A stretch of 63,289 nucleotides of DNA from an uncultured Christensenella sp. (GTDB lineage Bacteria; Bacillota; Clostridia; Christensenellales; Borkfalkiaceae). A program made the position numbers and the translations under genes. The notes beneath the pieces were generated by a model. That model had not been told where the DNA came from. It did no database searches and worked only from the letters and a program-made list of their open reading frames with translations. The stretch is taken from the NCBI GenBank assembly GCA_949878495.1, contig CATLAR010000002.1:1-63289 (forward strand). Reading direction: 5' to 3'. This document shows, one piece after another, positions 1,926 through 63,289 of the stretch (positions are counted from its first letter, which is position 1; every line of letters starts with the position of its first letter).

Positions 1926-2012
1926 TTGAGTTTCCGCTCTTAAAACGGAAGTGGCGGGCGAGGCCTTTAAGCGCAAATTAAAAATTTTTAAAAATTCAGG
2001 AGAATAAATAAA

Positions 2013-2390: not shown

Positions 2391-2401
2391 TTTAAAAACC
2401 A

Positions 2402-2435
2402 ACCGCCCCCGACTTACCGTCGGGGGCGGTTTTTT
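2402..2435 (+). terminator. rplL terminator
   Basis: Perfect stem ACCGCCCCCGAC / GTCGGGGGCGGT with a short loop and six T, 12 nt after the rplL stop. Confidence 0.95.
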
Positions 2436-2510
2436 CGTGCAACGGCTAAAAATGCCTGTCGTGCCGCAAGCGGTTCTATCGTCTGGAAGGAAAAATTGCT
2501 TGTCGCAGTG

Positions 2511-2544
2511 CAAGCATTTTTCGTCTTGAGACGAAAAATGCTTG
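2511..2544. promoter_or_regulatory. 34-bp perfect palindrome overlapping a -35 box
   Basis: CAAGCATTTTTCGTCT and its exact reverse complement are separated by two bases (16+2+16). The right end overlaps the TTGACT -35 of the downstream promoter. It may be a dimeric repressor operator or, as a transcript, a hairpin. Confidence 0.6.
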
Positions 2545-2570
2545 ACTTGCCCGTATTTTCAAAGTAAAAT
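2542..2570 (+). promoter_or_regulatory. Promoter of cyclophilin-like gene
   Basis: TTGACT (2542-2547), 17-bp spacer, TAAAAT (2565-2570). The predicted start falls about 8 nt before the ATG at 2585, and no Shine-Dalgarno is visible. A second TATAAT (2578-2583) abuts the ATG. Confidence 0.65.
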
Positions 2571-2584
2571 AAAGTAGTATAATT

Positions 2585-3526
2585 ATGAAACGTTTTAAAT
2601 TAGGAAAAATTGCAGTATGCATTGCGTCGGCAGTCGCTATGACTTTCGCGGTATCTGCGGCGAGCGCGTGCAATATCGAAACCGCCCACCCCGAAGCTGA
2701 AATAACCTACTCGTTCAACGGAAAGACTTACGCCGTCAAGTACACCCTTTACAGGAATATGTACCCGCACACCGTAAGGCATTTTATCGAGCTTGCGAAC
2801 AACGGTTTTTACGATAACACCGTAGTTCACAGCTATACGACCAACGATTGGTTCACGGGCGGCTATTCTTACGACGCGGACGACTACTCGGCTAAAATGT
2901 CTAGCGGCAGCCAGATGTCGGAATACTTCGACGGACAGTCCAAAGAGGACGCTTACGTTCAGCTTTTCAACGAAGGCAAGCTCTCGCGTTCGGTATACGC
3001 CAACCTCAACTATTCGGGCGAGGATCAGACGGTAAACAAGGACAGCGCGCTTTACACGGTAATGGGCGAGTTCTACAACAATATCCATCAGACGATCGAA
3101 AAAGGCAAGCTGACCGCGGAATACGGTTGTCTTAAAATGTACTATTACGAAAAGGAAACCACCAAAAAAGTAATAGTAACGCCCACCGAGGACCAGCCCA
3201 CGCTTGCCGACTACAAGTACAACAGCGCGACTTCCGTCTACGCCGTTCAGGTAGGAACGAGTTCGTCTTACAACGAAAATAACTACACCGTGTTTGCAAG
3301 GCTGAGTTCGACGGATACTTTCGATTCGTTCGTAACGGCTATCCGCAACTATATTTCCGATAACCACGGCGGCACGACGAGCGAGTTCTACACCGAAACG
3401 AGCGTGCGTGTAGACAATAACGAGAATTTCTCCGACAAGCTCGAAGCGGACAAGGGCACTACGGTTACGTTCAACGCGCCGAAAACGCCCGTCGTAATCG
3501 AGTCGGTTAAAATAACCAAGTACTGA
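2585..3526 (+). CDS. Secreted cyclophilin-like peptidyl-prolyl isomerase
   Basis: The N-terminus MKRFKLGKIAVCIASAVAMT is a signal peptide. Ala-Ser-Ala-Cys at about residues 26-29 suggests a lipoprotein, although the lipobox is poor. The following segment, PHTVRHFIELANNGFYDNTVVHS, matches the start of the cyclophilin fold (P-TV-NF--L---GFYD---FHR). The canonical catalytic arginine position is not obvious and the middle is divergent, so activity is uncertain. At 313 aa it is longer than a bare cyclophilin. It would act outside the membrane, perhaps in folding of exported proteins. It is transcribed alone, with a terminator after it and a near-leaderless promoter before it. Confidence 0.75.
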   Translation: MKRFKLGKIAVCIASAVAMTFAVSAASACNIETAHPEAEITYSFNGKTYAVKYTLYRNMYPHTVRHFIELANNGFYDNTVVHSYTTNDWFTGGYSYDADDYSAKMSSGSQMSEYFDGQSKEDAYVQLFNEGKLSRSVYANLNYSGEDQTVNKDSALYTVMGEFYNNIHQTIEKGKLTAEYGCLKMYYYEKETTKKVIVTPTEDQPTLADYKYNSATSVYAVQVGTSSSYNENNYTVFARLSSTDTFDSFVTAIRNYISDNHGGTTSEFYTETSVRVDNNENFSDKLEADKGTTVTFNAPKTPVVIESVKITKY

Positions 3527-3541
3527 TACCAATTAAACGCG

Positions 3542-3573
3542 CCGCGCTCCCGAATACGGGGGCGCGGATTTTT
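3542..3573 (+). terminator. Terminator after cyclophilin-like gene
   Basis: Stem CCGCGCTCCCG / CGGGGGCGCGG with loop AATA, then ATTTTT. Confidence 0.85.
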
Positions 3574-3592
3574 CGTGATTTTATAATTTTAC

Positions 3593-3621
3593 TTGCTTTT
3601 AGAGTGTTTTTGTTATACAAT
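3593..3621 (+). promoter_or_regulatory. Promoter of DUF2188/CobW genes
   Basis: TTGCTT (3593-3598), 17-bp spacer, TACAAT (3616-3621). The 5' UTR of about 28 nt carries GAGGTG before the ATG at 3656. Confidence 0.6.
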
Positions 3622-3655
3622 ACTGGGTATAAATATAGTAAATATGAGGTGTTAA

Positions 3656-4186
3656 ATGCATTTGCTGTTCAGTTTTTCCGAAATACCGCTCTGGTCGTGG
3701 ATAACCGCCGCCGTAATAATCGTTTTAGCGGTAATAGCTATCGTCTGTATCGTTTTGTGGGCGAACAAAAACTCCGCAAAGTCCAAAAAAGAACAGGCTG
3801 CGCCCGCAAAGCGCGAACAGTCGGAATCCGTGGAAACCAAACCGGCGGCAAAGCCCGTTGAGAAGAAAACCGAGCCTAAGCCAGCAGAAACCAAGCCCGC
3901 GGCTAAACCTGCGGAAGCCAAACCGGCGGCAAAGCCCGCGCAAAAACCCGTTGCCGGAAAAGAGGAGCTTTCGAACACTATGCCCAAAGCCGACAAGGTA
4001 TACCATATTTCCAAGCGCAAGCAGGACGGCAAGTGGCAGGTCAAGGCAGCGGGCGGCGCAAAGGCGATAAAACTTTTCGATACCCAGAAAGAGGCTATCG
4101 CGTACGCAAAAACGCTTGCGGACAATCAGGACGCGCGCGTAGTCGTACATAAAATGGACGGTTCGTTCAAAAAAGACAGTTATTAA
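3656..4186 (+). CDS. Membrane-anchored DUF2188 protein
   Basis: Three parts are visible: a single transmembrane helix (about residues 14-35, WITAAVIIVLAVIAIVCIVL); a low-complexity Lys/Pro/Ala linker (about 42-105) with repeated KPAAKPAE-type units; and a C-terminal domain of about 60 residues (KVYHISKRKQDGKWQVKAAG... DTQKEAIAYAKTLADNQ... VVVHKMDGSF) matching the DUF2188 family, whose function is not established. The domain most likely faces the cytoplasm. The start is set by GAGGTG. The following CobW gene begins 10 nt after the stop, so the two are probably cotranscribed. Confidence 0.8.
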   Translation: MHLLFSFSEIPLWSWITAAVIIVLAVIAIVCIVLWANKNSAKSKKEQAAPAKREQSESVETKPAAKPVEKKTEPKPAETKPAAKPAEAKPAAKPAQKPVAGKEELSNTMPKADKVYHISKRKQDGKWQVKAAGGAKAIKLFDTQKEAIAYAKTLADNQDARVVVHKMDGSFKKDSY

Positions 4187-46842: not shown

Positions 46843-49800
46843 ATGAAAATAAAATTCAACAGGTTAAAATTTTCGGCGATAATTGCGCTTGCCGCAAGTT
46901 TCTTGTGCTGCGTTTGTGTAAGCGCGGCGGGACTGTTCGCCTCGCCCGCCAAGGCAAACGCCGTGGGTACGGCGTTTACGTATTCGTTCGGCGGCGACCA
47001 GAGTTCGCGCGTTACGACAGTACGCAATTTAATAACGCGTGTGAACGGCTCGTCAACGACGTACGGTACGTACGCCGAGTTTTCCCGCGCGTTCACGGCG
47101 GCGCGCAACGCCCAGCAAATAAACGCAAATATAAATCTCGGCGGTATTCAGTGGCAAATCGTGTATGCCGAAAAAGCGGCGCATTCTTACGGCAATACCG
47201 AAAAGGGCGACGTTGTAATCACTCTGTTTATGTCAAGTTCGGCTTCTACGCAAAACGCAGTATCGTATAGCCCTTTTACCAGCTCGGATAACACGCTCGC
47301 ATATCCCTCGGGAATGTATTCGTCCAGCTACGTAAGAAGCGTGCTTACGGGCAGTTCCTACGCGGCGAGCGTTGCCGACGCTCAGGCGGGAATACTTACC
47401 GACGGCGAGCAGGGTTCGATATTGTCGGCGCACGAAAGTTTGTACGGCAGGTTTTTAGCAGTGCCCGCAAATATGGGCTATCAGGAAACCGAAAGCGCAA
47501 AGGTGCAGTATAATGCGGCAAAAAACCACGAAAACGAATCCTGGGGAACGCAAACCAACTCCAATACAATACTGAATTACGGTTCCAAAAAGAGTAATAC
47601 CGATTGGAAATACGATAAATTCTGGATTCCGTCCAGAACGGAAACGGGCGGAACTTCCGATACGTCCGCCGGTTTCTGGAATTTAAGCGACTCTATGAGA
47701 AGCTCGACCGTCGGCGGCGATTTCTGGCAGAGAACGACCACTACCGCAGGCAACGCCCACGTTCTGAGTTATACGGGCGTTACAAACTCGAAGGCAACTA
47801 ACGTGACGGGAATGATCCGTCCCGCAATGCATTTGAATTTGCGGCTCTTGTACGAGGACGCGACGACGCAGGTTTCCGAGCTCTATAACGGCAGTTCTGT
47901 CAATCAAAGCGCGCTCTCCGATTTATTGTCGGCGCTAAACTCGGGCAACGGCGGCGACTATAACGCGCTTAAAGCGGCGGTCAACGCCCGCGGCGGCGCG
48001 ATGGACTACACGCAGATTAAAGCCAACAACGGCGGCAAAACGCTGACCGTCACGCTCGGCGGCAGACAGTGGTTCGTGCCCTATGTATCCAAGGATAAGA
48101 CGGGCAACCTTATAGCCACGCTCTGGCTTTCGGGCGGTTCGGACAACGCGCCCTATTCAGATAAATGGGCGTCTGCAAACTCTTCGGGCAGTATAGAGGT
48201 AGTAGGCAACTCGCCGAGAATTTCCTATCCCGCGAATATGTACGGAACAAGCTATCTGCGCTCTTTCCTCGTCGGCTCGCCTTTCGCTGCGGCAACGGGC
48301 GGCACTACGGATACAGACGCGGCATACGGCGATTATACGAAAATAACGGGCGACGGTCAATTATCTCTTAACTACTCGGGCGCGCAGTCGGGAGTGTGGA
48401 AAACCTTCCTTGACAGCGGCGTAACCGACTATCTCGTCAAACCCAAAAACGTAGGCTGGCAGGAGGACGAGGCTTACTGCATAGCCCACGGCAGCGGCAC
48501 TATACTTTGCCCCAACGAGGAGCTGGGCATTCCCGCCGCGGGCGTTCACGTAGGCGGAATGAACTATTCCGACCGCTACGGTTACTACGATTGGGGCGAG
48601 GACTATATCTGGATACCCTCTTTGTACGAAACCAAGCTCGACCAGCGCAACGACAGCGCGGTGACCGACAAAAACAGCGGTTTATGGGCTGCCGATCTTG
48701 CGCTTACCTGTCCCGACGGCGAAACGGGTACCTGGGTGCGCTCGGCGAACTCTCTCAGCGCGAACTTCGGCATTTACCACACCGATACGGGCATGTCGTA
48801 CACGGCGCGAGCGTGTTACGGCGAAGCCAAAGTCCGTCCCGCGTTACATTTCAATCTTACCAAAGCCGCGGGCGGCGACCCCGCGGAAAAAGCTCTTGCC
48901 GAGCTTTGGAACGAAGCCGTGCAGGACAGTATAGACTCGGGCAAACAAGTAGAGTTCATTCTCCCCGAAAACTGGTACGCTTTTGCTGACGAAGCTAACG
49001 GAACGTCGTTCGGCGCGGGCGTAGGCTTTAAAAACGGCGCGCTCTGCGTACCCGCGGGCGCGGACATAAAACTGCGCTTAAACGGCAGGGTTATCGACCG
49101 CAACCTCGCTTCGGCGCATTCGGGCGGCGGAGTAATCTACGTAAGCGGTAAACTCGAGGTAGTAGACCTCACCCACGCGCACAGCGGCAAAATCACGGGC
49201 GGCAACACGACCGAAAGCGGCGGCGGCGTTTGCGTTACGGACGGCGGCGAGTTCACGCTGACGGGAGGACAGATTACGGGCAACCGCTCCAATTCGGGCG
49301 GCGGCGTTTATGCCGCGGGCGCAAACTCCAAGGTAGTCATAAGCGGCGGCGTGATTTCGCAAAACGGCGTTGAAAACTTGGGTGGCGGACTCTTCATCGC
49401 CGACGGCGCGCATTTCGAGCTTAACGGCGGTACTCTAATGCGAAACAGTGCGAAAACGTACGGCGGCGCGGTGTTTATTAATGGCGTTTCGTTTAGAATG
49501 AGCGGCGGCGCGGTTTCCGAAAACCAAGCCGGGTACGGCGGCGGCATTTATATCAACGGTGGAAATGGCGAAGGCTCTAAGGGCACGGTCGAGCTTAACG
49601 GCGGCTTTATTTCGGCGAACAAGGTTACTAACGGTGGTGGCGGCATTGTAGTGGAAAAATGCGCGTTGACCATAGACGGTTGCAATATAGTCGGTAATCA
49701 GGCGGGTTCCAGCGGCGGCGGCTTGTCCGTTTTCGCCGCGACCGCGCGCTTAGTCAGCGGACATATTGACGACAATACGGCTGTCATTAACGGCGGCGGA

Positions 49801-52800
49801 GCGTTTGTCGACGGTATCAAAGTCGGTAGTGCGGAATTTATTGTCGACGGCGGCACCGTTTCGGGAAACAATGCCGCATCCGGCGGTGCAATTCACATTG
49901 CCGACGGCGGTAGCTCGGTAATAAACAACGGCGATATTTCTAATAATAACGCTCATTACGGCGGCGCGCTCCGCGTTGCGGGCTTGGGTTCGGCGCGTTT
50001 AACTTTAAACGGCGGCACCGTTTCGAACAACACGGGTGTTGACGGCGGCGCGCTTCATATCAATCCCGATAGTAACCCCGATGGTGTAGAAAACTTTACT
50101 ATGAACGGTGGGGAAGTTATCAACAACGTTGGCGAGATAGGCGGGGCGTTCTTGTTATGTCGACACACTATTGCGTCCATTAACGGCGGCGTTATATCTA
50201 ATAACACCGCAAAAGTCAGGGGAGGCAGCGTTTACGGCGTGCATTCCGTTGAACTTACTATAACGGGCGGCGAAATCATAGATAACCGTCTTACAGACGA
50301 TCTGTCTTACGGCGGAGGACTTTGTTTAATAGGTCAGTTGTGGGCGACGGAAACTTCGCATTCGGCTAAACTTATTATGTCGGGCGGGTTGATTGCCCAT
50401 AACAGCGCGGGCAGCGACGGCGGCGGTATTTACGTAAACGGCGCGCCCTTTACTATGACGGGCGGCGAAATTATTTATAACGAAACGCGCTTAAACCAAA
50501 ACGGCGGAGGAGGAGTGCGGCTTGCGTATAAAGCCGAAATGACTTTTTCCGGCGGACTCGTCGCGCACAATACTTCGGGCAGTTCGGGCGGCGGCATTTC
50601 GCTTACCGACGCTACGCTGAATATGAGCGGCGGCGTGATTACGGGCAACATGGCTATAGAAAACCGTGACAACCCCGTTAACCCGGGCGGCGGAGGCGGC
50701 GGCGTCAGTCTGTGGGAGTCAACGTTTAATATGACTGGCGGAGAAGTCTCCGACAACGAATCGGGGTGTTACGGCGGCGGAGTTATAATAAGCGGCGGCG
50801 GTACAATATTTTCTACTTTTAATCTCCAAGGCGGCAGGATAATCAACAACCGCACCACGGGACAAAGAGCGGGCGGCGGTATAGCCGTTTCTTGTTCGCG
50901 CGTGTCGGGAGTGTTTAACGGCGCGCCCAACGTTTTAAACGTTTCGGGCGGCGTGGTTACGGGGAATACCGCTATGGGCGGCAGGGTTTCAAACGTATAC
51001 CTCGACGGCACGACAAGCGCAAACCGCGCGAAAATCAATATCATAGGCGCGCTTGCGGACGCAAATGGCAAGACCACTTGCATAGGCGTTACTTCGGCGT
51101 TCTCGGGCGTGTTCACTGCGGGATATTCGGCGAATAACGCGGGCGTAAACGCTTTGACGTACTTCTTCTCGGACGACTCGAGTATGGGCGTTGCAATGAG
51201 CGGGAACGAAGCTGCGCTGAGCGGCTCGGTGGACAGAAAGACTTTAATATGGCAATACCGTGAAAACGGCGGAAGCTGGACGAATATAGAAAGCACGCAG
51301 TTTACGGCGGAGTATACGGGCGGGACTTTCGAGGTACAGGCGGTCTATAACGGCACCGTCGTTATAAGCGCGCCCACTTCCACGAGCGCGGCGGGGGGTG
51401 TTGCTTCGGCGTTCTCGGGCGTAGGCGTTTACGCGTTCACGCTTGCCAACGCGGAAAGCGGCGGCGTGGTGTTTGCCAACCCCGCTTTGATATTCGAAAT
51501 CGTGCCCGCGAGCATTAGCTGGCAGATTGCAGTAACCAAGGACATAGACGGCAACGCGGTTAATCCCGTCTGGGAAGAGGCGCAGGGCAACGCGCTTTTG
51601 TTCACGGGTTGCGAGTACACGGTGCGCGCCGTCAGCGGCGGGCATACGGTCGCGCTCGAAGGCTCGGCGGTAATGCTCGAAGCCAAGGATTACGAATTTA
51701 AAGTAGTCGGCGCGGACGGCGGAAACTACGACGGCGGAACGCTGAATTTCAAGGTAAACGCAAGATATATAGGGGTTAACTGGATTTTCGACGGTTTTAC
51801 GGGCAACGCTTACGCAGGCTATGAAAAGGTTTACGACGGCTTCGGTCACTCGCCGATATTCACCGTGAACAATATAGATAACGTTACCGTCGGTCAGTTA
51901 AAAGTACATAAAGAATACTCGTACAACGGCGGCGTTTACACAACGGCGGAACCGAGAAACGCGGGTGTTTACGATGTGCGCCTTGCGTTCGACGGCGACA
52001 GTCGATTCCTTAAACACCTCGGCAAAAGTATAATATTCACGGGCGAAAACGCACGTTTTAAAATAACGCCCGTATCCCTGCGCGTGGAGTGGCGCAACGG
52101 CGACGGCACGCCGCTTTCGGGCGACGCCGAGTACGTTTACAACGCGGCGGGGCAGGGGCTTTCGTTCAGGCTTTTAACGCCTATGGCGGGCGAGAGCGTG
52201 AACGGCGTGGTTAAGTATTATTACGCTTCGGGTTCGCCTTTAAACGGCGCGCCCGTCACCCCCGGCGAATACCTTGCCCGCGCGGATTTGCCTGCGGACT
52301 GCGTGAACTACGTACTTGCGGACAATTATTCGCATTCGCTCACGATAACGAGGGCTACCATTTCGCCCAAATTCACGGGCAACGCCGACAACGGCGGCGC
52401 GTTCGTATGGTACTATAACGGCAAGGCGCAGGCGCCTTCGGTAACGCTCGTCGGTGCGGACGGAATTGCTCTGGTTGCGGGCGTTGATTACGATATTACG
52501 GGCGACGACAATCTAAACGCCGCCGATTACGTTTTAAGCGTCGCGCTCAAAACCGACGCGGCGGAACTGTATATTTTAGAGGACGCGACGCGTTCGTTCA
52601 CCATAGCCAAAGCGCCCGTCGACGTAGAATGGTCGGGGTATACCGAGCGGGACGGCGCAACGGAAATTTCGGGCGAAAAACGCGTTGACGGCGGGATATA
52701 CTGGACTTACGACAAAAACGCGCACGGCGTTAAAGCCGTTGCCAGGCCCTTGAACGGGCTGGACGAATTCGAGCTTTCGCTCACCGACGCGGGCGGGCTT

Positions 52801-55800
52801 GTAAACGTAGGGTCGCGTACGGCTACGGCGGGGCCGGGCGAGTTTGCGACCAACTTCGAGTTTACCGCTTCGGCAAAACGCACGCAGAATTTCGCAGTTG
52901 AAAAGTTTATAATCGGCAACGTGGTATGGGAGCGCGACGGCAAGACCTATAACTCGGGCGACACTCCACGTTTCGCTTTCGGAAAGGTCACAAGCGAGGG
53001 ACCGGGCTTTACGGTAAGCGCGGTCGGCGCGGCGGGAGAAACGCTTTCGTTCACGGATAAGAGCTTCTCGTGGGCGGCTTCGGGCGAGGTTTACGATTTG
53101 CCCGAAAACACCGTCGACGGATACACGGTTACGGTAACGCTTGCGGACGGGAACTACGCGTTCGCGGCTGGTATTGCAAGCGATACGCAGAGAGTTAAAA
53201 CGCAGATTAAATTCTTTATAGACCCCGTTTATGCGGAAGTCGCCACCGTTGAAGTCGTGTGGTATACTCTCGACGGCGAGGGCAACCGCGTGCCGCTTTC
53301 GGATACTCCCGACAATAAATTCACCTTCGTTTACGACGGCGGCGAGCACGAGATTTACGCCTGGTTCTACGGCGAGGACGGGAATTGGGCTACGGGAGTT
53401 GCGGCGTTTCCCGACGACAGGTTCGACGTTATCTTTACGGGCGACAAGAAGAGCGCGGGCACGCACGTGGCGAGAATTACGCCAAGGCTTGGTTTCGAGT
53501 TCCACGGCTCGGTAGAATGCTCCTACGAAATTACCAAAAAACCGCTTACGATTGAATGGAAAGCGGACGGTAAATACGTTTACGGCGGCAGCGCTTCGGA
53601 AATTATCCCCCACTATACCGTCAAAGACGGCGACAAAACGCTGTTCGTGTACGACGGAACTTCCCTCCCGAACTCGGGCGAACTGTTCGAAGCGGGTTTC
53701 TACGTGACGGGCGCGTATAACGCGGGCCCTCACGAAGCGCTTACGCATATCAGCGATAATTACAGCATTATAAACGGCACGTTCGGGTTCACTATCAGCC
53801 CGTTTGAACTGACGGGCGACATTGTGTGGGATAACCTTGAAATTATTTACACGGGCGGCGTAGCGCAGCCTACGGCGAAGATAGAAACGCCGTACGACGG
53901 CGATCTCGTTCTGCGCGTGCTCGGCGGCGATTCCGCGCTGGGCGAACACACGGCTTTCGCGATTATCGACAGTACGGGCGCGGGGCACAATTACGTGCTG
54001 TCCCCGTCGGTCGATAACGAGAAAACGTTCGTAATCATTCTCAAAAAAATCGACGTCAACTCCGTCTATTGGACGGCGGAAGATAACGCCGACGGCGACA
54101 GAATAACTTACGGCGAGTATACTTTCGCGTTCGACGGCAACGGAGGCGCGGCAGCGGGCTTAACGCAGGGTCCGCACGCGTTCTTCGTGGACGGCGACAG
54201 GGCGTATAAACTCGAGGTCGTAGGGCACGCCTCGAACGCGGGCGGTTACGTTGCGTTCGTTGCGGCGGGTTACGACTTCCGCAACGGCGAAGCGCAAGCC
54301 GCCGCCCCGAGCTGTCCGTTCGTCATCAAGCCCAAAACCGTAACGGGCGCGTGGTCGGATACTACGGCGGTTTACGACGGCAAAGTTCACAAACCCAAGT
54401 TCACGCTCGCGCCTACGGGCAACGTTTTAGAGAGCGAGCAGCTCTCCGGGGCTATCGAAGTCACGGGCTTTGAGAACGCGGGCGTTTACACGGCTTCGGC
54501 TACGTTATCCGAGGGGTATTACCGCACCAATTACGTTTTCGACGACGGAAAAGGCGGCGCTTGCAACACGCTTTCAACGCCTTTCACCGTAAATAAATTC
54601 ACCGTCGGTTCCAAATATTTCGCGTGGAATGGCGAGGCGAGCTGGACTTACGGCGACGAAGTTACGCCGCCCGAGCTTTCGGCGACCGCGCTTTCCGTCG
54701 AGATCGACGGCGAAGCCGTTTCGTTCACTTTCGCGTACACGGGTTTCAGCGGCTACGCGGGCAGTCACAGCGTTACCGCGCGCATTGCTTCGGCAACGCT
54801 CGGCGGCGAGGACGTAAGCGGCAATTTCGCGCTGGATATAGCGGCGTTCGCTTACGTGGTCAACGCCAAAGAGGTTGAAATAGAATGGCGCTGGACGGGC
54901 GCGGACGAGAGCGGCGACAAACCGTCGTTCGCCTACAACGGTCTTGCGCGCGGTCCCGTCGTCGTTATGAAGGTCGGAAGCGACTACGTCACCGACGAAA
55001 ACGGCGAGGAAATCACCCTTAAAGTCCACGACCTCGGCACCACGGTCGGCGGGTATACGGCAAGGGTATTCGCGCCCGACAACTACGTGTTCAAGGGCGA
55101 CAAGTACTCCGCGGAAGCCGAGTACGTCATAGTCAAAGCCGAAATCACGCTCGTCTGGGATAAGAACGGCGGCGAGGAAATTTTCGCCGACGACGGCGTT
55201 ACGCTCACGGGCGTTAAATGGACTTACGACGGACAGTCGCACGCGCCCAAAGCCTTCGTTTACGACGCGGAAGCAGAGAACGGGCGGGGCGGCGAAGTAC
55301 GCGTTACGGGCTCGTCGACGGACGCGGGCACGTTCACGGCGTACGCCGAGGGCAACAACGAAAACTACGAAATCTCGGGCGGAAGCTCGTCGCTTAACTG
55401 CGTTATCGAGGCGGCGGTGGTCTACCTCGTCTGGCGCGGCAACGCCGAAGGCGGGTTCGAATGGCAGTACGACGACGGCAAGGAGTTCGCGCCTACGGCA
55501 GTGCTTGCAACCCGCGACGGCGAAACGGGCGACCTTACCCCGATTATCTCGGGCGGCGACTACCTGTTCGCAACCGTTACGGGCGCAATGGGCGTAGTCT
55601 GCGGCGAGGGCGAGAGCTATACCGCAACCGCCGTTCCCGACAAAAAGAATTACTCGTTCGCGGCGGACGCAGAAGTCACGCACGAGTTCAGAATCGTCCC
55701 CAAAGTCCTCAGCGGCGAGGGCTGGGAGTTCGAATGGAAGAGCGAAACTCAGCCTCAGCTTGGCGGCGAATACGCCGTTTACGGCTTCGTGTATAACGGC

Positions 55801-58614
55801 ACGGCGCAAGCCCCCGTTCCGCACGTCGCGCTGGGAATGCTGTTCGTCGTCGAGTACTACTCGGTCGCGGAGGACGGCACGCTCACTCCCGTATCCGAAT
55901 ACGCGCTCACCGAGGCGGGCAGATACCGCGTAACCGCTTCGTCGGCAGACGGCAACTACGCCGTTCCCGCAGATAAAGCGACGGTAGAGGTCGTAATCTC
56001 CCCCAAAACCGTAAAAGCGGTATGGAGTACGGAAGAAATTATTTATAAGGGCGCGGACGTCAACCAATCGCCTTCGGCGCATTTTTCGGACGTAAACGGC
56101 AACAAAATCATTTTAAACGTTTTGGTCGACGCGGCGGCGTATGCCGAGGTCGGCAAATATTCCGCGACCGCCGCGTTCGTATCCCCGAGCGCGAACTACG
56201 TTCTCGATACGGACAGCACGGCGACCGAGTATTCGATCAGCCCCCGCAAAATCCCCGTAGCGTGGGATTGGACGGGTTGGACGGATAAGTCCGCGGAATA
56301 CGACGGCAAACCCCATGCCCCCGCGGCAACCCCGTCAATGGATAACGCTTACGAAGCCGACCTCAAAGGCGGGCTGACGGTAAGCTCGGCTATAACTCTC
56401 GGCGGTAAAACGGTGGCTTCGGCGGTCAACGCGGGCGCGTACGTTATAACGCTCACTCTCGGCGGCTCGGCGGCGAAAAACTACTCGCTCACCGACGACA
56501 GCGCGGGCTTTACTATAACCAAGCGCGCGCTGATTATAACCGCGCAAAGCGACACGGTGGCTTACGGCTCGCCCGTGCCCTCGTACTCGGCAACGTTCTC
56601 GGGCTGGGCTGACGGCGAAAACGAAAACAGCTTCAACCTCTTAAACGGCGCGGTCAAGGGCAATTGGATTTCCTGCGCGTACAACCGCCGCTCGCAACCC
56701 GGCGAGTACCCCATACGCCTCAACCGCGTATGGCTGGAAAGCACGCTTAAAAACTACAAACTCACTTTAACCGACGGAACGCTCACCGTCACAGCCGTTG
56801 ACAAAACGGTAATCTGGCGGGGCGAGCTTGACGACGTTGGCGCGTATTACAGCGGCGCGGAGTATAAGCCCACTGCGGTTTACTACCCCAACGGCACTAC
56901 GGGCGCGCCCGCTCGGCTTCAGGTCGTTTACGCCGAGTACGACGAAAAAACGGGCGTTTACAAGCCTTTGAACGACCCCGACTTCAAAGCCGTCAAAGCG
57001 GGTACATACCACGTTATCGCGGTTGGCGGCGACGCGTCGGTAGAGCTTACCAACACGGGGCTTACCTACGAGATACATAAGCGCAAAATCACCGTCAATA
57101 TCGAGTCCGTGTCCGAAGAGGAGTTCGGCAGCGTTTATAAAGTAGTCGACGACGGCGAGGAAACCGTCCGTCACAAGTTCCTTGACTGGAGCTACGCCGA
57201 CGGAGTTCGTCCCGTTTCCGGCGACGACCTCGGCATTACGCTAAGCTGTTCGTTCGAGTTCGACGCGCACGGTTACGCACACGCCGGCGAGTATAAAATC
57301 GTAGGAGACTGGAACAGAGCGCAGTACGGTTTCGACTACGAGGTGGTTTTCGCAGGCGACGGCGTGGACGGCGACGGCAACGAAACGTGCGGTACGTACG
57401 AAATCGTCAAGGCGAAAATCAGCATTTTAAAGCGCGACGATATTATGTCCGAGGGCGACTTCACTTACCATATAGGCAACGTTTCCAGCGGCAAGGCGTG
57501 GTATATCCGCCTGGGCGACTACGGCACGGTCGACGGCGTTGAACAGTATCTCTTCATCGGCAGCAAGGGCTACCGCGGCAGGGATAACGTCAAGGTCGAA
57601 TACAGCTTCAAAGCCTATAATATGAACGAGCTCGACCCGTCCGTTCCGCTCACGCCCGAGGAAGAAACCAATTGGATAACCGAGCGCGTAGGGCTGAGGT
57701 TGATAGGTAAATATTTCATTCATTACAGAATAACCATTGAAAACCACGAAACCCTGCTCGGCACCTGGCGCGTGCTCATTCTTCCCGAAAACGAGGTTGT
57801 AAGAATTATCTTCAACAAGCCCTACGAAACGGAGTACGGCAAACCCGTACCCGAAGATCTGGCGCAGTACCTCTATAAAGAGGGTTACGTCACGTTCGAC
57901 AATATCGGCGTAGACGCTTACAACAACCGCGTTACGGCTTCGGTAGACGACGGTTACGGCGGTCGCGTAGACTCGAAAACGGGCGTAGGTAAATACACCG
58001 TAAACTTCAAAATCGACAACACGGGTTCGGATATCGAGTACCATATCGTGTATAACACCCTGCAATCGCTCGAAGAAACCAACGTCGGCGCGTACGTAAT
58101 CGCACCCAAGCGCATTTATATCGAGTGGGGCGAAACGAGTTACGAGTACGACGGCACGCTCAAAGCCCCGTCGTTCGTAATCAGCGGCTTTATCACGGCT
58201 AACAACTACACCGTAACGCCCGATAATCTTCGGTTCGTGACCGAGGGCGACGGCTACGAATACACCGCGATAAAAGTGACCGACAACGGCGCCGAAGTGA
58301 CGGTAATCGTCGCGGCGCGCGGCAACTTTACGGCGGTCGGCGGACATATGCTAAGGCTGACCGTGGAAAACTCCAATTACGATATTAAGACCACTGACGG
58401 CGAAACTGTAGTTTCGATAATTTCACCCGAAATCGAGCCGCCCGTTGTGGACCCTACACCCGCGGAAGGTTTGCCCAAATGGCTTATTTACGTGCTTATA
58501 GGCACGGGCTGCGTAATCGGTTTAATGTTTATTATCATAATTATTCTGGCGGCGCGTAAGCGCAAAGCGGCGGAATACGACGACGAAGGCTTCGGCGATT
58601 ATTACGATCAATAA
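46843..58614 (+). CDS. Giant modular surface protein (3923 aa)
   Basis: Secreted, membrane-anchored, adhesin-like. Signal peptide (about 1-40); two DUF6273-like domains (about 55-335 and 360-670, each closing in RPA(M/L)H(L/F)NL); a right-handed beta-helix of GG-x-I-x-x-N ... GGG(V/I)Y turns (about 750-1460); then some two dozen Ig-like MBG/YDG-type repeats of about 90 residues with motif Y(D/N)G-x-x-H-x-P (about 1465-3860). Near the end EPPVVDPTPAEGLPKW leads into one membrane helix (about 3879-3905) and a short acidic cytoplasmic tail; no LPxTG. Start at 46843 after GAGGTG. Ligand unknown. Confidence 0.93.
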   Translation: MKIKFNRLKFSAIIALAASFLCCVCVSAAGLFASPAKANAVGTAFTYSFGGDQSSRVTTVRNLITRVNGSSTTYGTYAEFSRAFTAARNAQQINANINLGGIQWQIVYAEKAAHSYGNTEKGDVVITLFMSSSASTQNAVSYSPFTSSDNTLAYPSGMYSSSYVRSVLTGSSYAASVADAQAGILTDGEQGSILSAHESLYGRFLAVPANMGYQETESAKVQYNAAKNHENESWGTQTNSNTILNYGSKKSNTDWKYDKFWIPSRTETGGTSDTSAGFWNLSDSMRSSTVGGDFWQRTTTTAGNAHVLSYTGVTNSKATNVTGMIRPAMHLNLRLLYEDATTQVSELYNGSSVNQSALSDLLSALNSGNGGDYNALKAAVNARGGAMDYTQIKANNGGKTLTVTLGGRQWFVPYVSKDKTGNLIATLWLSGGSDNAPYSDKWASANSSGSIEVVGNSPRISYPANMYGTSYLRSFLVGSPFAAATGGTTDTDAAYGDYTKITGDGQLSLNYSGAQSGVWKTFLDSGVTDYLVKPKNVGWQEDEAYCIAHGSGTILCPNEELGIPAAGVHVGGMNYSDRYGYYDWGEDYIWIPSLYETKLDQRNDSAVTDKNSGLWAADLALTCPDGETGTWVRSANSLSANFGIYHTDTGMSYTARACYGEAKVRPALHFNLTKAAGGDPAEKALAELWNEAVQDSIDSGKQVEFILPENWYAFADEANGTSFGAGVGFKNGALCVPAGADIKLRLNGRVIDRNLASAHSGGGVIYVSGKLEVVDLTHAHSGKITGGNTTESGGGVCVTDGGEFTLTGGQITGNRSNSGGGVYAAGANSKVVISGGVISQNGVENLGGGLFIADGAHFELNGGTLMRNSAKTYGGAVFINGVSFRMSGGAVSENQAGYGGGIYINGGNGEGSKGTVELNGGFISANKVTNGGGGIVVEKCALTIDGCNIVGNQAGSSGGGLSVFAATARLVSGHIDDNTAVINGGGAFVDGIKVGSAEFIVDGGTVSGNNAASGGAIHIADGGSSVINNGDISNNNAHYGGALRVAGLGSARLTLNGGTVSNNTGVDGGALHINPDSNPDGVENFTMNGGEVINNVGEIGGAFLLCRHTIASINGGVISNNTAKVRGGSVYGVHSVELTITGGEIIDNRLTDDLSYGGGLCLIGQLWATETSHSAKLIMSGGLIAHNSAGSDGGGIYVNGAPFTMTGGEIIYNETRLNQNGGGGVRLAYKAEMTFSGGLVAHNTSGSSGGGISLTDATLNMSGGVITGNMAIENRDNPVNPGGGGGGVSLWESTFNMTGGEVSDNESGCYGGGVIISGGGTIFSTFNLQGGRIINNRTTGQRAGGGIAVSCSRVSGVFNGAPNVLNVSGGVVTGNTAMGGRVSNVYLDGTTSANRAKINIIGALADANGKTTCIGVTSAFSGVFTAGYSANNAGVNALTYFFSDDSSMGVAMSGNEAALSGSVDRKTLIWQYRENGGSWTNIESTQFTAEYTGGTFEVQAVYNGTVVISAPTSTSAAGGVASAFSGVGVYAFTLANAESGGVVFANPALIFEIVPASISWQIAVTKDIDGNAVNPVWEEAQGNALLFTGCEYTVRAVSGGHTVALEGSAVMLEAKDYEFKVVGADGGNYDGGTLNFKVNARYIGVNWIFDGFTGNAYAGYEKVYDGFGHSPIFTVNNIDNVTVGQLKVHKEYSYNGGVYTTAEPRNAGVYDVRLAFDGDSRFLKHLGKSIIFTGENARFKITPVSLRVEWRNGDGTPLSGDAEYVYNAAGQGLSFRLLTPMAGESVNGVVKYYYASGSPLNGAPVTPGEYLARADLPADCVNYVLADNYSHSLTITRATISPKFTGNADNGGAFVWYYNGKAQAPSVTLVGADGIALVAGVDYDITGDDNLNAADYVLSVALKTDAAELYILEDATRSFTIAKAPVDVEWSGYTERDGATEISGEKRVDGGIYWTYDKNAHGVKAVARPLNGLDEFELSLTDAGGLVNVGSRTATAGPGEFATNFEFTASAKRTQNFAVEKFIIGNVVWERDGKTYNSGDTPRFAFGKVTSEGPGFTVSAVGAAGETLSFTDKSFSWAASGEVYDLPENTVDGYTVTVTLADGNYAFAAGIASDTQRVKTQIKFFIDPVYAEVATVEVVWYTLDGEGNRVPLSDTPDNKFTFVYDGGEHEIYAWFYGEDGNWATGVAAFPDDRFDVIFTGDKKSAGTHVARITPRLGFEFHGSVECSYEITKKPLTIEWKADGKYVYGGSASEIIPHYTVKDGDKTLFVYDGTSLPNSGELFEAGFYVTGAYNAGPHEALTHISDNYSIINGTFGFTISPFELTGDIVWDNLEIIYTGGVAQPTAKIETPYDGDLVLRVLGGDSALGEHTAFAIIDSTGAGHNYVLSPSVDNEKTFVIILKKIDVNSVYWTAEDNADGDRITYGEYTFAFDGNGGAAAGLTQGPHAFFVDGDRAYKLEVVGHASNAGGYVAFVAAGYDFRNGEAQAAAPSCPFVIKPKTVTGAWSDTTAVYDGKVHKPKFTLAPTGNVLESEQLSGAIEVTGFENAGVYTASATLSEGYYRTNYVFDDGKGGACNTLSTPFTVNKFTVGSKYFAWNGEASWTYGDEVTPPELSATALSVEIDGEAVSFTFAYTGFSGYAGSHSVTARIASATLGGEDVSGNFALDIAAFAYVVNAKEVEIEWRWTGADESGDKPSFAYNGLARGPVVVMKVGSDYVTDENGEEITLKVHDLGTTVGGYTARVFAPDNYVFKGDKYSAEAEYVIVKAEITLVWDKNGGEEIFADDGVTLTGVKWTYDGQSHAPKAFVYDAEAENGRGGEVRVTGSSTDAGTFTAYAEGNNENYEISGGSSSLNCVIEAAVVYLVWRGNAEGGFEWQYDDGKEFAPTAVLATRDGETGDLTPIISGGDYLFATVTGAMGVVCGEGESYTATAVPDKKNYSFAADAEVTHEFRIVPKVLSGEGWEFEWKSETQPQLGGEYAVYGFVYNGTAQAPVPHVALGMLFVVEYYSVAEDGTLTPVSEYALTEAGRYRVTASSADGNYAVPADKATVEVVISPKTVKAVWSTEEIIYKGADVNQSPSAHFSDVNGNKIILNVLVDAAAYAEVGKYSATAAFVSPSANYVLDTDSTATEYSISPRKIPVAWDWTGWTDKSAEYDGKPHAPAATPSMDNAYEADLKGGLTVSSAITLGGKTVASAVNAGAYVITLTLGGSAAKNYSLTDDSAGFTITKRALIITAQSDTVAYGSPVPSYSATFSGWADGENENSFNLLNGAVKGNWISCAYNRRSQPGEYPIRLNRVWLESTLKNYKLTLTDGTLTVTAVDKTVIWRGELDDVGAYYSGAEYKPTAVYYPNGTTGAPARLQVVYAEYDEKTGVYKPLNDPDFKAVKAGTYHVIAVGGDASVELTNTGLTYEIHKRKITVNIESVSEEEFGSVYKVVDDGEETVRHKFLDWSYADGVRPVSGDDLGITLSCSFEFDAHGYAHAGEYKIVGDWNRAQYGFDYEVVFAGDGVDGDGNETCGTYEIVKAKISILKRDDIMSEGDFTYHIGNVSSGKAWYIRLGDYGTVDGVEQYLFIGSKGYRGRDNVKVEYSFKAYNMNELDPSVPLTPEEETNWITERVGLRLIGKYFIHYRITIENHETLLGTWRVLILPENEVVRIIFNKPYETEYGKPVPEDLAQYLYKEGYVTFDNIGVDAYNNRVTASVDDGYGGRVDSKTGVGKYTVNFKIDNTGSDIEYHIVYNTLQSLEETNVGAYVIAPKRIYIEWGETSYEYDGTLKAPSFVISGFITANNYTVTPDNLRFVTEGDGYEYTAIKVTDNGAEVTVIVAARGNFTAVGGHMLRLTVENSNYDIKTTDGETVVSIISPEIEPPVVDPTPAEGLPKWLIYVLIGTGCVIGLMFIIIIILAARKRKAAEYDDEGFGDYYDQ

Positions 58615-58860
58615 GTTAAAACACCTCACCCCTGCCCCTCCCCTCAAGGGGAGGGCAAGAGAGGGGATAATCTTGATTTCTCCTTGAGGACGAGCGTTGA
58701 TTTCTTTGTGACGGCACGGTGCGCCGTCGCATCAACGCGAGATGAGTGAGCGCATTTTATCGCGCTAACGGTGACCGAGGCGACGGGTTTTCCTTACCGT
58801 CGCCGAGCCAGCTGTCCCGTAGGGACTGATGAGGTGTGGAAACAACGGAAAGCAAAAAAC
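58615..58860. repeat. Composite repeat between the giant genes
   Basis: Inverted copy of the palindromic element split in two (CACCTCACCCC...CCCCTCAAGGGGAGGG and CAGCTGTCCC GTAG GGACTGATGAGGTG) with a 103-bp unit (58682-58784) nested between. That unit matches 6397-6499 on the opposite strand at 94 of 103 positions. Confidence 0.85.
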
Positions 58861-58883
58861 TATCTTTAAAGAGGTAACGCTAT

Positions 58884-61800
58884 ATGAAAACATTCGGAGT
58901 TAAAAGAAAGCTGGCGATAGCATTTCTCACGGCAACGTGCGCGCTTACCGCGGCTTTCGGCGCGGGCGGTTTTTTCGGCTTTGAAAAAGCTTCCGCAACC
59001 GCGGACTATACTAACGACGGCTTTATCAAAACGGGCAGTCTTTTCACGGGCAGCACGATAAATAAAAGCACGCTTACCGCCCTTTACGACGGGTTGTCGC
59101 CCGAAAAACTTGGCGACTTCCGCGGCGTTGAAGCCGCGCTCGATACGAACGACGGTCACGTAACGGCTCGCAAACTGCGCGAGTACAATCAAAATAAAGA
59201 CCTTATCGTCACCGTTCAGGACAAAGAATGGACGGTGACCTACCTCTCGCGCGACAAGGACGGCAACGTAATAGCCACGCTCTGGCTCAACGACGCGGGG
59301 CATAAACTTGAAATAAGCAACGCTTACGCGCCTTATTCGGGCGGCTATACGGGCGGCTTAAGCACGGCATACCCGTCAAATTACTACGGTTCGGCGTTCA
59401 TTCGCGCTCTGCTTATCGGTGGCGTTTATTCGCACGGCGGCGCGGCTTCCGTGTATAACGGCGCGGTCAATTATACCGCATCAACAAACCCTTCAACTTC
59501 GGTGGTGTCGGCGACGACCACATGGATAACTTTCGGTCAAAGCTACGCCGACTATATTGTCAAGCCCGAAAACGTAAGCTGGCAGATTGCCCCCAAGGAC
59601 GGCTATTCCCAGTCAAAGCGTTGGGGCAACGCCGTTGACCACGCAAACGACTTTCTCGATACTTCGCGCTGTAAGTTCAACGAGGGACTCGATTACTCGG
59701 GCAAGGGCAGTACCTCTAACAAAACAGACTACACTGCCTGGGGAAGCGATTTGTTGTGGTTGCCCTCGTTCGACGAAACGGGCGGCGTAAATCCAAGCGG
59801 TACTACGCTGGCGGGTCTTTGGGGGACTTCCCTGCAGCAAAACCAGAACGACGGCGGAGTCAACAGCGGCAACCTAGATCCAAGCAAAGTAAACGGCACG
59901 TATAACGGAACCTGGCTTAGGTCTGCCGCCGTTGCGGGCGCTCACCCTGTTTATCTTAACGCGGACGGCACTTTCGGCTCGGGATATTCCTACGTTTGCC
60001 GTATGATGCGCCCCGCGTTCCACCTCAACTTAACCAAACTTTACGAGGAAACGAAAAGCGCCCCTTCAACCGAGAACGAGGACCGCATTTCGGCTTGGAA
60101 CGAGGCGATTGAAACCAGTCTCACCAACGACGGCGCACCCGTTACCTTCACGCTCGCGCACGACTGGACGGCTCGGCCCGACGAGGAATATTCAACGGCT
60201 TTCGGTCGCGGCGACAACTTCTTTAACGGCGGACTGCTCGTTCCCCGCGGCGCGAATATAAAACTCGACTTAAACGGCTGTATCCTCGACCGTAATATCA
60301 CCGAGGAAGACGGCGTGGCGGCGGGTCGTGTAATCAACGTAGACGGCGGCACGCTTGAAATTTGCGACGGCAAAACAGGCGGCAAAATTACGGGCGGATA
60401 CGCAAACCGTCCCAACGGCGAAGGCGAACAGCACGCCTACGGCGGCGGCATTTATGCATATAGCGGCGCGCGGCTTATCGTTTCGGGCGGAAGTATTTCG
60501 GGCAACCGAGGCGCGTGGGGCGGCGGCGTTTTCGTCCAGAATTGCACGTTAATAATGACGGGCGGCGCGATTTGCGATAACTATGCTTCTTACGGCGGCG
60601 GCGCGTTCGTTTACGCAAGTCAATTTAATTTGAAAGACGGCGCGGTATACGGCAACCGTTCTCGCAGCAGCGGCGGCGGTATGTATTTAAACCGCGGCAC
60701 TTGTATGACTTTGGACGGAGGCACCGTAAGCGATAACGAAGCCGAAGGCTCGGGCGGCGGTATTTTTGCCAACGCCGATAAAGAAGGCGTGTCCGTAACG
60801 TTTATTATGAACGACGGCAGTATTTCAAACAATAACGCCTCGCACGGCGGCGGTTTTTGCGGAAACGTTGAAAGAGAGGCAACCAAAGTTTCGGTAACGG
60901 TAAACGGCGGATATATACAGGGCAATAACGCTTCAAACTCGGGCGGCGGTATGCTCGTGAACGGCTTGAATACCGATTTTACAATCAACGGCGGGCATAT
61001 CGTCCGCAACTCGGCATACTATTACGGCGGCGGCGTATATTCGGAGTGTCACCTTCAAATGCGCGGCGGCGAAATATCCTACAACAAAATAACTGTCGTA
61101 ACCACTGCCCTCGTAGACGGGTATCTTTATAGCGGCGGAGGGATATACGTGCGAGGTGAGTTCGCCTCGTTCACGATGTATGGCGGTAAAGTCAGTCATA
61201 ACGAATCTTCAAAGAATTTGACTTATATTTTCGGCGGCGGCATTGCCGTTTCATCTGCCAAATTCACAATGTACGGCGGCGAAGTTTCCTACAATTACGC
61301 TTACCGCGCGGGCGGCGGAATTTACCTTGACGGTATTACAAAAGCCGTTATTTACGACGGATTTATTACGAAAAACAGTGTTACACAGGACGGCGGCGGC
61401 GCTATTTGCGCTTTTGGAAACGATGCGTCGGGCAGGGTTGATCTTACTATAAACGGCGGTACTTTTTCGGAGAACGTTGCATATTTTTGCGGTGGAGTAT
61501 ACAGCTATAACTACGCTTACATTAACTTAAACGGCGGCAGAATAATTAATAACGTGAGCACGGGAGATAATCTTAGGGCGGCAGGTTTGCATTTAGCAAG
61601 AGGTGGGACTGCCATCGATATGAAATTGACTATAACTGGCGGTATCGTAGTGGGTAACTTCTGTGTGGACGGTATTATATGTAACGTATCCACGGGTCAT
61701 AACGCAGCTCTATCGATTCCCATCACGATAGGCGGTAAATTAGCTTCCGATACCTGCATAGGACTTTCGGGGTGGACCAACGGCGCGGCGATAACTTCGG

Positions 61801-63289
61801 GGTTCGTGACATCCGGCAACGCGCTTGCGTCTTACTCCACGCATTTCTTTGCGGACAAAGGCTCGCTTGCGACCGCGGGCAACGAAGTAGTGTGGAGAAG
61901 CGGCGGGACTATCAGCATTCAGGAAAACCTGACCTGGACGGTGAGCGACGGCGTTTCTTCGCAGAGCTATAAAGACACGGCGTATTTTAATAAAGAATAT
62001 TCGCCCGCGAAGAACTACACGCTGTCCTGCTCGACCAATATTTATTATATCTGCGACGAAACGGGGCGCAACGTAACGACCATCAACAAAGTAGGCAAGT
62101 ACTACGCTATGAGTTATAACTCGGCTTCGTACGCTAACGGAAATATCGTTTTCGAGGTATTGCCTCTGTCGCTCGACGGCGCGGAGGTCAGTGTTGCAAA
62201 CGGCGTTTACGGCGGCGGCGGGATAAAGCCGAAAACCACGGTTAAGCTGGGCGGCAAAACTCTTACGGAAGGCGTTGATTATACGCCGGAGTATTTTAAC
62301 AACGTGCGTGCGGGCAGCGGGGCTTCGGTGTGTATCGTAGGCAAAGGCAATTACTCGGGCACGGTAAACGCGAGCTTCGAAATAGAGAGTAAGAACGTAA
62401 ACGTGCGCTGGGGCGATCTCACGAAAATGTACACGGGGGATACGCAAAGCGTTTCTGCGGTGCTCGAAGGCGTGGTTGCGGGCGATAACGCGGGCGTTGT
62501 AGTTTCGTATACGGACGCGGAGGGTAATTTCGTGGCCCGTCCCGTGGACGCGGGCGAGTACTACGCGTACGCCAAGCTCTACGCCGCCAACGACTATAAG
62601 TTTGCGGACGGTGCGGCGTACTACAAACTATTTACGATAGCGGCTAAGCCCGTTGATTTAAAGCTGGAAGAAAGTTCGGCGGAATATACGGGCGGCGCGC
62701 AGAGTGCCAAAGCGTATTATCTTGATATAAACGGCGAAAAGAATTACGAAAACAGACTGACTATGACGGGTCAGAACGGCGGCGTTGCCGCCGCGGGCGA
62801 CGCGGACGTTTACGAAGTTAAAATCACGGCTTCGGGGTCTGCGGACGGAAACTACGCTTACACCGCGGTAACGCGCACGCTGTATTACACTATAACGAAA
62901 GCGCCCGTTACGGCAAGCTGGGAAGAAAAAACTTACTCCTATAACGGCTCGGTTATAAAGCCGCAGCTTGTTCTTGACGGCGGCGACGGCGAGATAGTTT
63001 ACAAGTACTATACGGGCGGCGGCGTACGCGAGGAAGAGCGCGACCTCATTCCCGCTATAATCAACGCGGGGTCGTACGTGGTGCGCGCGTACCTCAACAG
63101 CAACAATTACGCGCTGTCAAACGGTTCGGGCGTTGTGGAATATCTGCAAACGACGGTTACGGTAGAAAAGGCGGTTTTCTCGCCCGAGAACTTCGCGCTT
63201 ACTCTCGAAAGGGAGTACACGGGCGGCGGATTGTCGGCGGAGAGTAGTTCAAATCCGCTTGAAAGTAACTTCAAAGTCGCGTACTATAC
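58884..63289 (+). CDS. Second giant modular surface protein (3' truncated by window)
   Basis: Open to the window end, so at least 1468 residues; absent from the ORF track because no stop is present. Signal peptide (about 1-38: MKTFGVKRKLAIAFLTATCA); one DUF6273-like domain (about 55-385, TWLRSAAV...MRPAFHLNLTKL); a helper segment with VPRGANIKLDLNGCILDRN matching VPAGADIKLRLNGRVIDRN of the first protein; beta-helix of GGG(I/V) turns (about 445-950); then Ig-like repeats from about 1000. The ribosome binding site is GAGGT. A tandem paralogue of 46843-58614. Confidence 0.92.
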   Translation, partial: MKTFGVKRKLAIAFLTATCALTAAFGAGGFFGFEKASATADYTNDGFIKTGSLFTGSTINKSTLTALYDGLSPEKLGDFRGVEAALDTNDGHVTARKLREYNQNKDLIVTVQDKEWTVTYLSRDKDGNVIATLWLNDAGHKLEISNAYAPYSGGYTGGLSTAYPSNYYGSAFIRALLIGGVYSHGGAASVYNGAVNYTASTNPSTSVVSATTTWITFGQSYADYIVKPENVSWQIAPKDGYSQSKRWGNAVDHANDFLDTSRCKFNEGLDYSGKGSTSNKTDYTAWGSDLLWLPSFDETGGVNPSGTTLAGLWGTSLQQNQNDGGVNSGNLDPSKVNGTYNGTWLRSAAVAGAHPVYLNADGTFGSGYSYVCRMMRPAFHLNLTKLYEETKSAPSTENEDRISAWNEAIETSLTNDGAPVTFTLAHDWTARPDEEYSTAFGRGDNFFNGGLLVPRGANIKLDLNGCILDRNITEEDGVAAGRVINVDGGTLEICDGKTGGKITGGYANRPNGEGEQHAYGGGIYAYSGARLIVSGGSISGNRGAWGGGVFVQNCTLIMTGGAICDNYASYGGGAFVYASQFNLKDGAVYGNRSRSSGGGMYLNRGTCMTLDGGTVSDNEAEGSGGGIFANADKEGVSVTFIMNDGSISNNNASHGGGFCGNVEREATKVSVTVNGGYIQGNNASNSGGGMLVNGLNTDFTINGGHIVRNSAYYYGGGVYSECHLQMRGGEISYNKITVVTTALVDGYLYSGGGIYVRGEFASFTMYGGKVSHNESSKNLTYIFGGGIAVSSAKFTMYGGEVSYNYAYRAGGGIYLDGITKAVIYDGFITKNSVTQDGGGAICAFGNDASGRVDLTINGGTFSENVAYFCGGVYSYNYAYINLNGGRIINNVSTGDNLRAAGLHLARGGTAIDMKLTITGGIVVGNFCVDGIICNVSTGHNAALSIPITIGGKLASDTCIGLSGWTNGAAITSGFVTSGNALASYSTHFFADKGSLATAGNEVVWRSGGTISIQENLTWTVSDGVSSQSYKDTAYFNKEYSPAKNYTLSCSTNIYYICDETGRNVTTINKVGKYYAMSYNSASYANGNIVFEVLPLSLDGAEVSVANGVYGGGGIKPKTTVKLGGKTLTEGVDYTPEYFNNVRAGSGASVCIVGKGNYSGTVNASFEIESKNVNVRWGDLTKMYTGDTQSVSAVLEGVVAGDNAGVVVSYTDAEGNFVARPVDAGEYYAYAKLYAANDYKFADGAAYYKLFTIAAKPVDLKLEESSAEYTGGAQSAKAYYLDINGEKNYENRLTMTGQNGGVAAAGDADVYEVKITASGSADGNYAYTAVTRTLYYTITKAPVTASWEEKTYSYNGSVIKPQLVLDGGDGEIVYKYYTGGGVREEERDLIPAIINAGSYVVRAYLNSNNYALSNGSGVVEYLQTTVTVEKAVFSPENFALTLEREYTGGGLSAESSSNPLESNFKVAYY

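What the first reader, a model, noticed from the sequence alone, without database searches (positions are those of the whole stretch)
46843..58614. 3923-residue modular adhesin-like protein with membrane anchor
Combines two DUF6273-like heads, a GGG-turn beta-helix and a very long Ig-like MBG-type stalk ending in a membrane helix and acidic tail instead of a sortase motif. The stalk could extend far beyond the cell wall.
Basis: partly seen in the sequence, partly recalled or inferred. Interest (0 to 1): 0.6.

Follow-up and report, generated by a model that had tools for sequence, protein, structure and literature searches.

The report
Giant membrane-anchored gut-bacterial surface fibre
An uncultured gut bacterium that has no detectable sortase enzyme carries a 3,923-residue surface fibre, probably sugar- or protein-binding at its tip, held in the membrane by one helix whose cytoplasmic end carries a short motif shared by most other giant surface proteins of its genus that have the same kind of head.

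Summary
One open frame (46843-58614, 3,923 aa) encodes a Sec signal peptide, two DUF6273 (C-type-lectin-like) heads, a GG-turn beta-helix, about 24 MBG-type Ig-like stalk units, one membrane helix and a 19-residue cytoplasmic tail. It is not chimeric: three relatives from two other genomes are colinear over ~3,900 aa at 41-49% identity with no indel above 24 aa. The best reading is a fibrillar-adhesin-like surface fibre about 0.1 um long (length estimated; adhesion inferred, not shown). New here: (1) a second giant gene of the same architecture follows at 58884, runs off the contig, and sits in the same place in all four copies seen; its three complete homologues lack a membrane helix. (2) Sortase is absent from 60 of 61 genomes of the genus. 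(3) The tail carries an acidic motif ([DEG]GFx[DE], often DDGFYDD) found in 15 of 18 complete, membrane-anchored relatives selected by their heads alone (shuffled tails: 0.5 expected, maximum 5 in 20,000 trials), including proteins with unrelated membrane-proximal domains. No Pfam, NCBIfam or held-literature entry covers this motif. It may be a cytoplasmic docking or sorting signal; that is untested.

The parts
46843..58614 (+). gene A: 3,923-aa giant surface protein
   Evidence: open frame; colinear relatives in two other genomes
46843..46962 (+). Sec-type signal peptide (residues 1-40, ends ..PAKANA)
   Evidence: sequence: basic start, hydrophobic core, AxA-like site; no dedicated predictor run
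46963..47847 (+). head 1, DUF6273 / C-type-lectin-like (residues ~41-335)
   Evidence: Pfam PF19789 24.8 bits, cut-off 23.5; AlphaFold2 model; Foldseek to phage DUF6273 proteins E 2.4e-7
47860..48867 (+). head 2, DUF6273-like (residues ~340-675)
   Evidence: alignment A5 shares YPxxMYxxSxxRxxL, WxxDxxWxPSxxE and RPAxHxNL motifs with relatives; no Pfam hit alone
48913..51042 (+). GG-turn right-handed beta-helix (residues ~691-1400)
   Evidence: GGxxxxN repeats every ~26 aa; all-beta model, pLDDT mostly 80-95 for residues ~690-1270 and lower after; weak beta-helix matches, none significant
51502..58437 (+). stalk: ~24 contiguous MBG/YDG-type Ig-like units of ~98 aa (residues ~1554-3865)
   Evidence: repeat HMM; Pfam MBG_2 at residues 3230-3315, YDG 3144-3220 below cut-off
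56440..58242 (+). membrane-proximal stalk (residues ~3200-3800), the best conserved part
   Evidence: 47-74% identity per 200-aa block to relatives, against 29-54% over the rest
58480..58548 (+). single transmembrane helix (residues ~3880-3902)
   Evidence: hydropathy 2.98 over 19 residues
58555..58611 (+). cytoplasmic tail RKRKAAEYDDEGFGDYYDQ
58579..58599 (+). GF tail motif DDEGFGD
58615..58883 (.). A-B spacer holding a dispersed palindrome (58635-58655)
58884..63289 (+). gene B (incomplete, contig end): one DUF6273-like head, GG beta-helix, MBG-like stalk; 1,468 aa seen

Best explanation
Gene A encodes a membrane-anchored fibrillar-adhesin-like protein. Shown by sequence and models: secretion signal, two C-type-lectin-like (DUF6273) heads and a beta-helix at the outer end, about 24 Ig-like MBG units as a stalk, one membrane helix, and a short cytoplasmic tail. 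Inferred: the Sec pathway exports it, it stays in the cytoplasmic membrane because the genome has no sortase, the stalk (about 0.1 um) carries the heads beyond the cell wall, and the heads bind glycan or protein ligands in the gut. The GF tail motif, shared with most other giant surface proteins of the genus that were examined, most likely serves as a cytoplasmic retention or docking signal. Gene B probably makes a second fibre of the same type that works with A and lacks its own membrane anchor.
For: Frame and domain layout. Head model resembles phage DUF6273 and receptor-binding proteins (best E 2.4e-7); the weak PDB matches are led by the DUF6273-bearing IgA peptidase (E 0.02) and the Legionella Lcl C-terminal domain, a GAG-binding C-type-lectin-like domain (E 0.066). 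Published DALI work places DUF6273 in the C-type-lectin fold (PMC10743442). No sortase in the own genome or in 60 of 61 genomes of the genus. Relatives keep length and order of every segment. Tail motif in 15 of 18 head-selected, membrane-anchored relatives.
Against: No binding data; DUF6273 has no established ligand, and in the IgA peptidase the DUF6273 domain did not significantly change catalysis. The PDB matches of the heads are not significant alone. Head identity between relatives (35-48% per block) is no lower than the stalk's, which is not the fast head evolution seen in many adhesins. The tail motif's function is untested.
Confidence: 0.65

Rival explanations
1. It is a structural envelope fibre (a surface-layer-like or fuzzy-coat scaffold, or a cell-cell spacer) whose heads mainly pair with each other or with protein B; ligand binding to the host or diet is secondary.
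For: Fixed length and module order over deep divergence and a best-conserved membrane-proximal end; conserved A-B pairing.
Against: No S-layer-homology or wall-binding domain was found by Pfam; recognisable lectin-like heads sit at the far end; A occurs in only a minority of the genus.
Confidence: 0.2
2. It is a nutrient-capture or enzyme-like protein: the beta-helix grips or cuts a polysaccharide and the heads hold the substrate near the cell.
For: Parallel beta-helices are common in polysaccharide lyases and phage tailspikes; the model has weak tailspike matches; GH3-like genes lie downstream of B in two relatives (read by eye; not profile-tested).
Against: No carbohydrate-active enzyme profile hit; the downstream neighbours differ between copies.
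Confidence: 0.1
3. The heads are hypermutated by a diversity-generating retroelement, as in phage tentaclins.
For: DUF6273 domains are DGR targets in gut phages (PMC10743442, PMC11792537).
Against: No reverse transcriptase (PF00078) was found in the genome; the assembly is about 92% complete, so absence is not proof.
Confidence: 0.03
4. The frame is an assembly chimera or a set of misjoined repeats.
For: The protein is long and the genome is a 78-contig draft.
Against: Three separately assembled relatives are colinear end to end or to their contig end; no stop or frame break in 11.8 kb.
Confidence: 0.01

Closest known systems
Fibrillar adhesins (FA-like proteins; PMC9210967)
   Same: Great length, presumed adhesive region at the far end, a stalk of Ig-like domains including YDG/MBG types used in that work, and a surface anchor.
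   Different: Membrane helix plus GF tail instead of a sortase motif; DUF6273 heads; stalk units highly diverged rather than near-identical.
Tentaclins of gut phages (PMC10743442)
   Same: N-terminal DUF6273 C-type-lectin domain followed by Ig-like domains.
   Different: Phage proteins of about 570 aa, DGR-mutated, no membrane anchor described; here bacterial, about seven times longer, no RT found in the genome.
Giant1-5 of Apilactobacillus kunkeei (PMC12863079)
   Same: Consecutive giant surface-protein genes in a small genome, with beta-solenoid domains near the N-terminus and a long stalk.
   Different: Their stalks are largely alpha-helical repeats, no transmembrane helix, SH3b-like wall-binding C-termini.
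Periscope proteins (PMC8201768, from its abstract)
   Same: Stalk lifts a binding domain off the surface.
   Different: Periscopes vary in length through near-identical repeats; here length is fixed and repeats are diverged.
C-terminal sorting tags such as PEP-CTERM, GlyGly-CTERM, MYXO-CTERM (PMC1569441, PMC3237569, PMC11980579)
   Same: Short shared C-terminal module with a membrane helix and basic cluster on many surface proteins.
   Different: Those tags have the signature motif before the helix (outside); here the conserved motif follows the helix and basic cluster (inside). NCBIfam's 28-position GG_III-CTERM model covers only the helix.

Membership tests
Fibrillar adhesin | large length | tested here: met
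   3,923 aa
Fibrillar adhesin | stalk of repeated domains | tested here: met
   ~24 MBG-type units; MBG_2 over cut-off
Fibrillar adhesin | known adhesive domain | tested here: inconclusive
   DUF6273, C-type-lectin-like, has no established ligand
Fibrillar adhesin | cell-surface anchor | tested here: met
   C-terminal transmembrane helix with basic stop; not a sortase anchor
Fibrillar adhesin | demonstrated adhesion | not testable with these tools
   needs binding assays
Sortase-anchored surface protein | LPXTG-type motif before the C-terminal helix and a sortase in the genome | tested here: not met
   no such motif in the C-terminus; no PF04203 in the genome or in 60 of 61 genomes of the genus
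DUF6273 (PF19789) | match over the curated cut-off | tested here: met
   24.8 bits against 23.5 for the two-head segment; only the C-terminal half of the profile aligns; head 2 alone has no hit
MBG/YDG stalk families | match over the curated cut-off | tested here: met
   MBG_2 49.4 bits against 25; YDG 24.5 against 25, just below
Tentaclin | phage-encoded, DGR-linked variable region | tested here: not met
   bacterial housekeeping neighbours; no RT in the genome
Periscope protein | near-identical tandem repeats and length variation | tested here: not met
   diverged units; length constant in relatives
GG_III-CTERM (NF041738) | match over 22 bits | tested here: inconclusive
   20 of 29 tails match at E<=1, one of eight shown exceeds 22 bits, and only the helix aligns; the own tail is not among the listed matches

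The most novel reading that the evidence does not exclude
The GF tail motif is a cytoplasmic docking signal: in a genus without sortase, many unrelated giant surface fibres end in a membrane helix followed by the same short acidic motif, which a cytoplasmic partner recognises to place, retain or mechanically couple the fibres, somewhat as animal adhesion receptors couple to the cell interior.
Probability: 0.25. Interest if true: 0.75.

Novelty: new variant of a known kind. Interest (0 to 1): 0.42.

Why it matters
It shows how a group of uncultured gut bacteria without sortase may hold very large surface fibres: by a membrane helix with a recurrent cytoplasmic motif rather than by wall linkage. 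If the motif recruits a partner, it would be a new class of surface-protein sorting or docking signal and a marker for predicting the surface proteins of this lineage. It also gives a DUF6273-headed bacterial fibre whose ligands can be tested directly.

Tried and rejected
Chimera: rejected by colinear relatives. Sortase anchoring: rejected. DGR diversification: no RT. Sequence search of the PDB: no hit for the whole protein. The first genome-contig scan found nothing; the second found only the two genomes already known, deposited as uncultured bacteria from an iMGMC isolate set. The lineage was not named more precisely. A DNA pattern for [DE][DEG]GFY[DE] is not specific by itself: 59 places in 61 genomes, most inside ordinary genes, with 8 recognised at the ends of giant frames. 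The tail model found no clear full-length match in a 391-genome sample of the class outside the genus, but one full match in another family of the order..DDDGFNDDYVNP. Laying out the whole genome was not available, so the tail census rests on searches. Tail alignments A1 and A3 were built from chosen tails, so their invariant GF is partly selected; the head-selected set is the unbiased count.

Full report
Observation. The frame 46843-58614 is uninterrupted and encodes 3,923 aa. It lies after a housekeeping series, rpsB-tsf-pyrH-frr-uppS-cdsA-dxr-M50 protease, on a 63,289-base contig that the window covers whole. The genome is a 1.21 Mb draft in 78 contigs, 92% complete.

Anatomy. Residues 1-40 are a signal peptide by eye. 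Two heads follow. Scanned together they pass the DUF6273 cut-off (24.8 against 23.5 bits), and 13 of 18 head relatives match that family; head 1 alone scores 17.7 and head 2 alone has no hit, so head 2 rests on the alignment. The two-head model has mean pLDDT 73.6. Against viral models its best matches include proteins named DUF6273 and receptor-binding protein (E 2.4e-7 and 2.1e-4). PDB matches are weak, led by the IgA peptidase whose N-terminal domain is DUF6273 (E 0.02) and the Legionella Lcl C-terminal domain (E 0.066, probability 0.98), followed by several C-type lectins at E above 1. Published structure comparison puts DUF6273 in the C-type-lectin fold (PMC10743442).

The beta-helix (about 691-1400) shows GG-turn repeats spaced about 26 residues. 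It models as all-beta with block pLDDT mostly 80-95 over residues 690 to about 1270, lower after that; the whole model, which also takes in the first stalk units, has mean pLDDT 77.0 and pTM 0.67. No solved structure matched significantly.

The stalk: a repeat profile built from units of this protein finds a near-continuous series from 1554 to 3854, about 24 units of ~98 aa, and finds the same series in three relatives that were not used to build it. The unit borders at 3630-3750 are read by eye. Pfam recognises one unit as MBG_2 and nearly one as YDG. At roughly 4 nm per Ig-like unit (general knowledge) the stalk would be about 0.1 um; this is an estimate.

Relatives. Gene A has full-length relatives of 3,941 and 3,915 aa and a contig-truncated one of 3,617 aa, in two other genomes of the genus (G011, G022). 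They align end to end at 41, 42 and 49% identity with no internal indel above 24 aa. The membrane-proximal part is the most conserved. In the genus sample, 21 of 61 genomes have some match to the base profile, but only these copies match at full strength. In a 201-genome family sample the strong matches were confined to this genus. The two genomes are deposited as uncultured bacteria, one as Eubacteriales; the isolate names contain iMGMC, which from my own knowledge is a mouse-gut catalogue.

Gene B. A giant homologue starts at 58884 and runs off the contig after 1,468 aa. All four A copies are followed by a B gene. B has one head here and in G022:C219 and three in the other two. The three complete B proteins have no C-terminal membrane helix; the window's own B end is unknown. 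Downstream genes differ, so the A-B pair is what is kept.

Anchor and tail. No sortase is found in this genome or in 60 of 61 genomes of the genus; the exception is in a genome rated 7% contaminated. The A tail is RKRKAAEYDDEGFGDYYDQ. To avoid choosing by tail, I took complete, membrane-anchored frames fetched because of their heads: 15 of 18 carry [DEG]GFx[DE] after the helix, against a mean of 0.46 and a maximum of 5 in 20,000 shuffles of the same tails. Relatedness among the 18 is not corrected for, so the shuffle count overstates independence. The three exceptions share another C-terminal type. Among the tails found in other giant frames, several (for example G008:C1, G004:C35, G022:C174) are not in the list of base-profile matches, so the tail is not merely inherited with the base. 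Some relatives put the motif at the end of a long cytoplasmic extension (..DVDGFYDNID in G010..VFDVGGFYTPADP in G085 and G023). No Pfam or NCBIfam model covers it: matches are to the helix only. A literature search for the string DGFYDD found nothing.

How it most likely works. Shown: layout, anchor type, lack of sortase, conservation. Inferred: export by Sec, membrane retention, extension beyond the wall, ligand binding by the heads, a role of the tail inside the cell, cooperation of A and B. I put the adhesin-like reading at 0.65 and a docking role for the tail at 0.25.

Novelty. As a giant fibrillar-adhesin-like protein it belongs to a known kind. The combination of DUF6273 heads, fixed-length diverged MBG stalk, helix anchor with a recurrent inner motif in a sortase-less genus, and a partner gene whose complete homologues lack a helix is a new variant.

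Noticed in passing
window 5371, 9470, 21942, 58635: A dispersed palindrome close to CCCCTCCCCTCAAGGGGAGGG occurs at four places in the window, none expected by chance.
   Followed up: no
G076:C11, G006:C1, G014:C20 (genus); G211:C1, G198:C2 (another family of the order): Open frames of 8,183 to 12,732 aa in genomes of 1.1-2.3 Mb.
   Followed up: no
L152, L159, L160, L161: Giant proteins with a long cytoplasmic extension that ends in a GFY motif.
   Followed up: partly
L180, L181: Small predicted proteins beside prfB/tsaD-like genes carry DDDGFYDSIDLS or DEDGFYDTVDLS near their C-termini; the resemblance to the tail motif may be chance.
   Followed up: no
G000:C12 from about 22262 (L040:7263-12255): A further giant frame (1,664 aa, cut at the contig end) with GG-turn beta-helix and Ig-like stalk in the same genome.
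   Followed up: partly
L154: A 2,450-aa relative in G005 ends like the B proteins, without a membrane helix.
   Followed up: no
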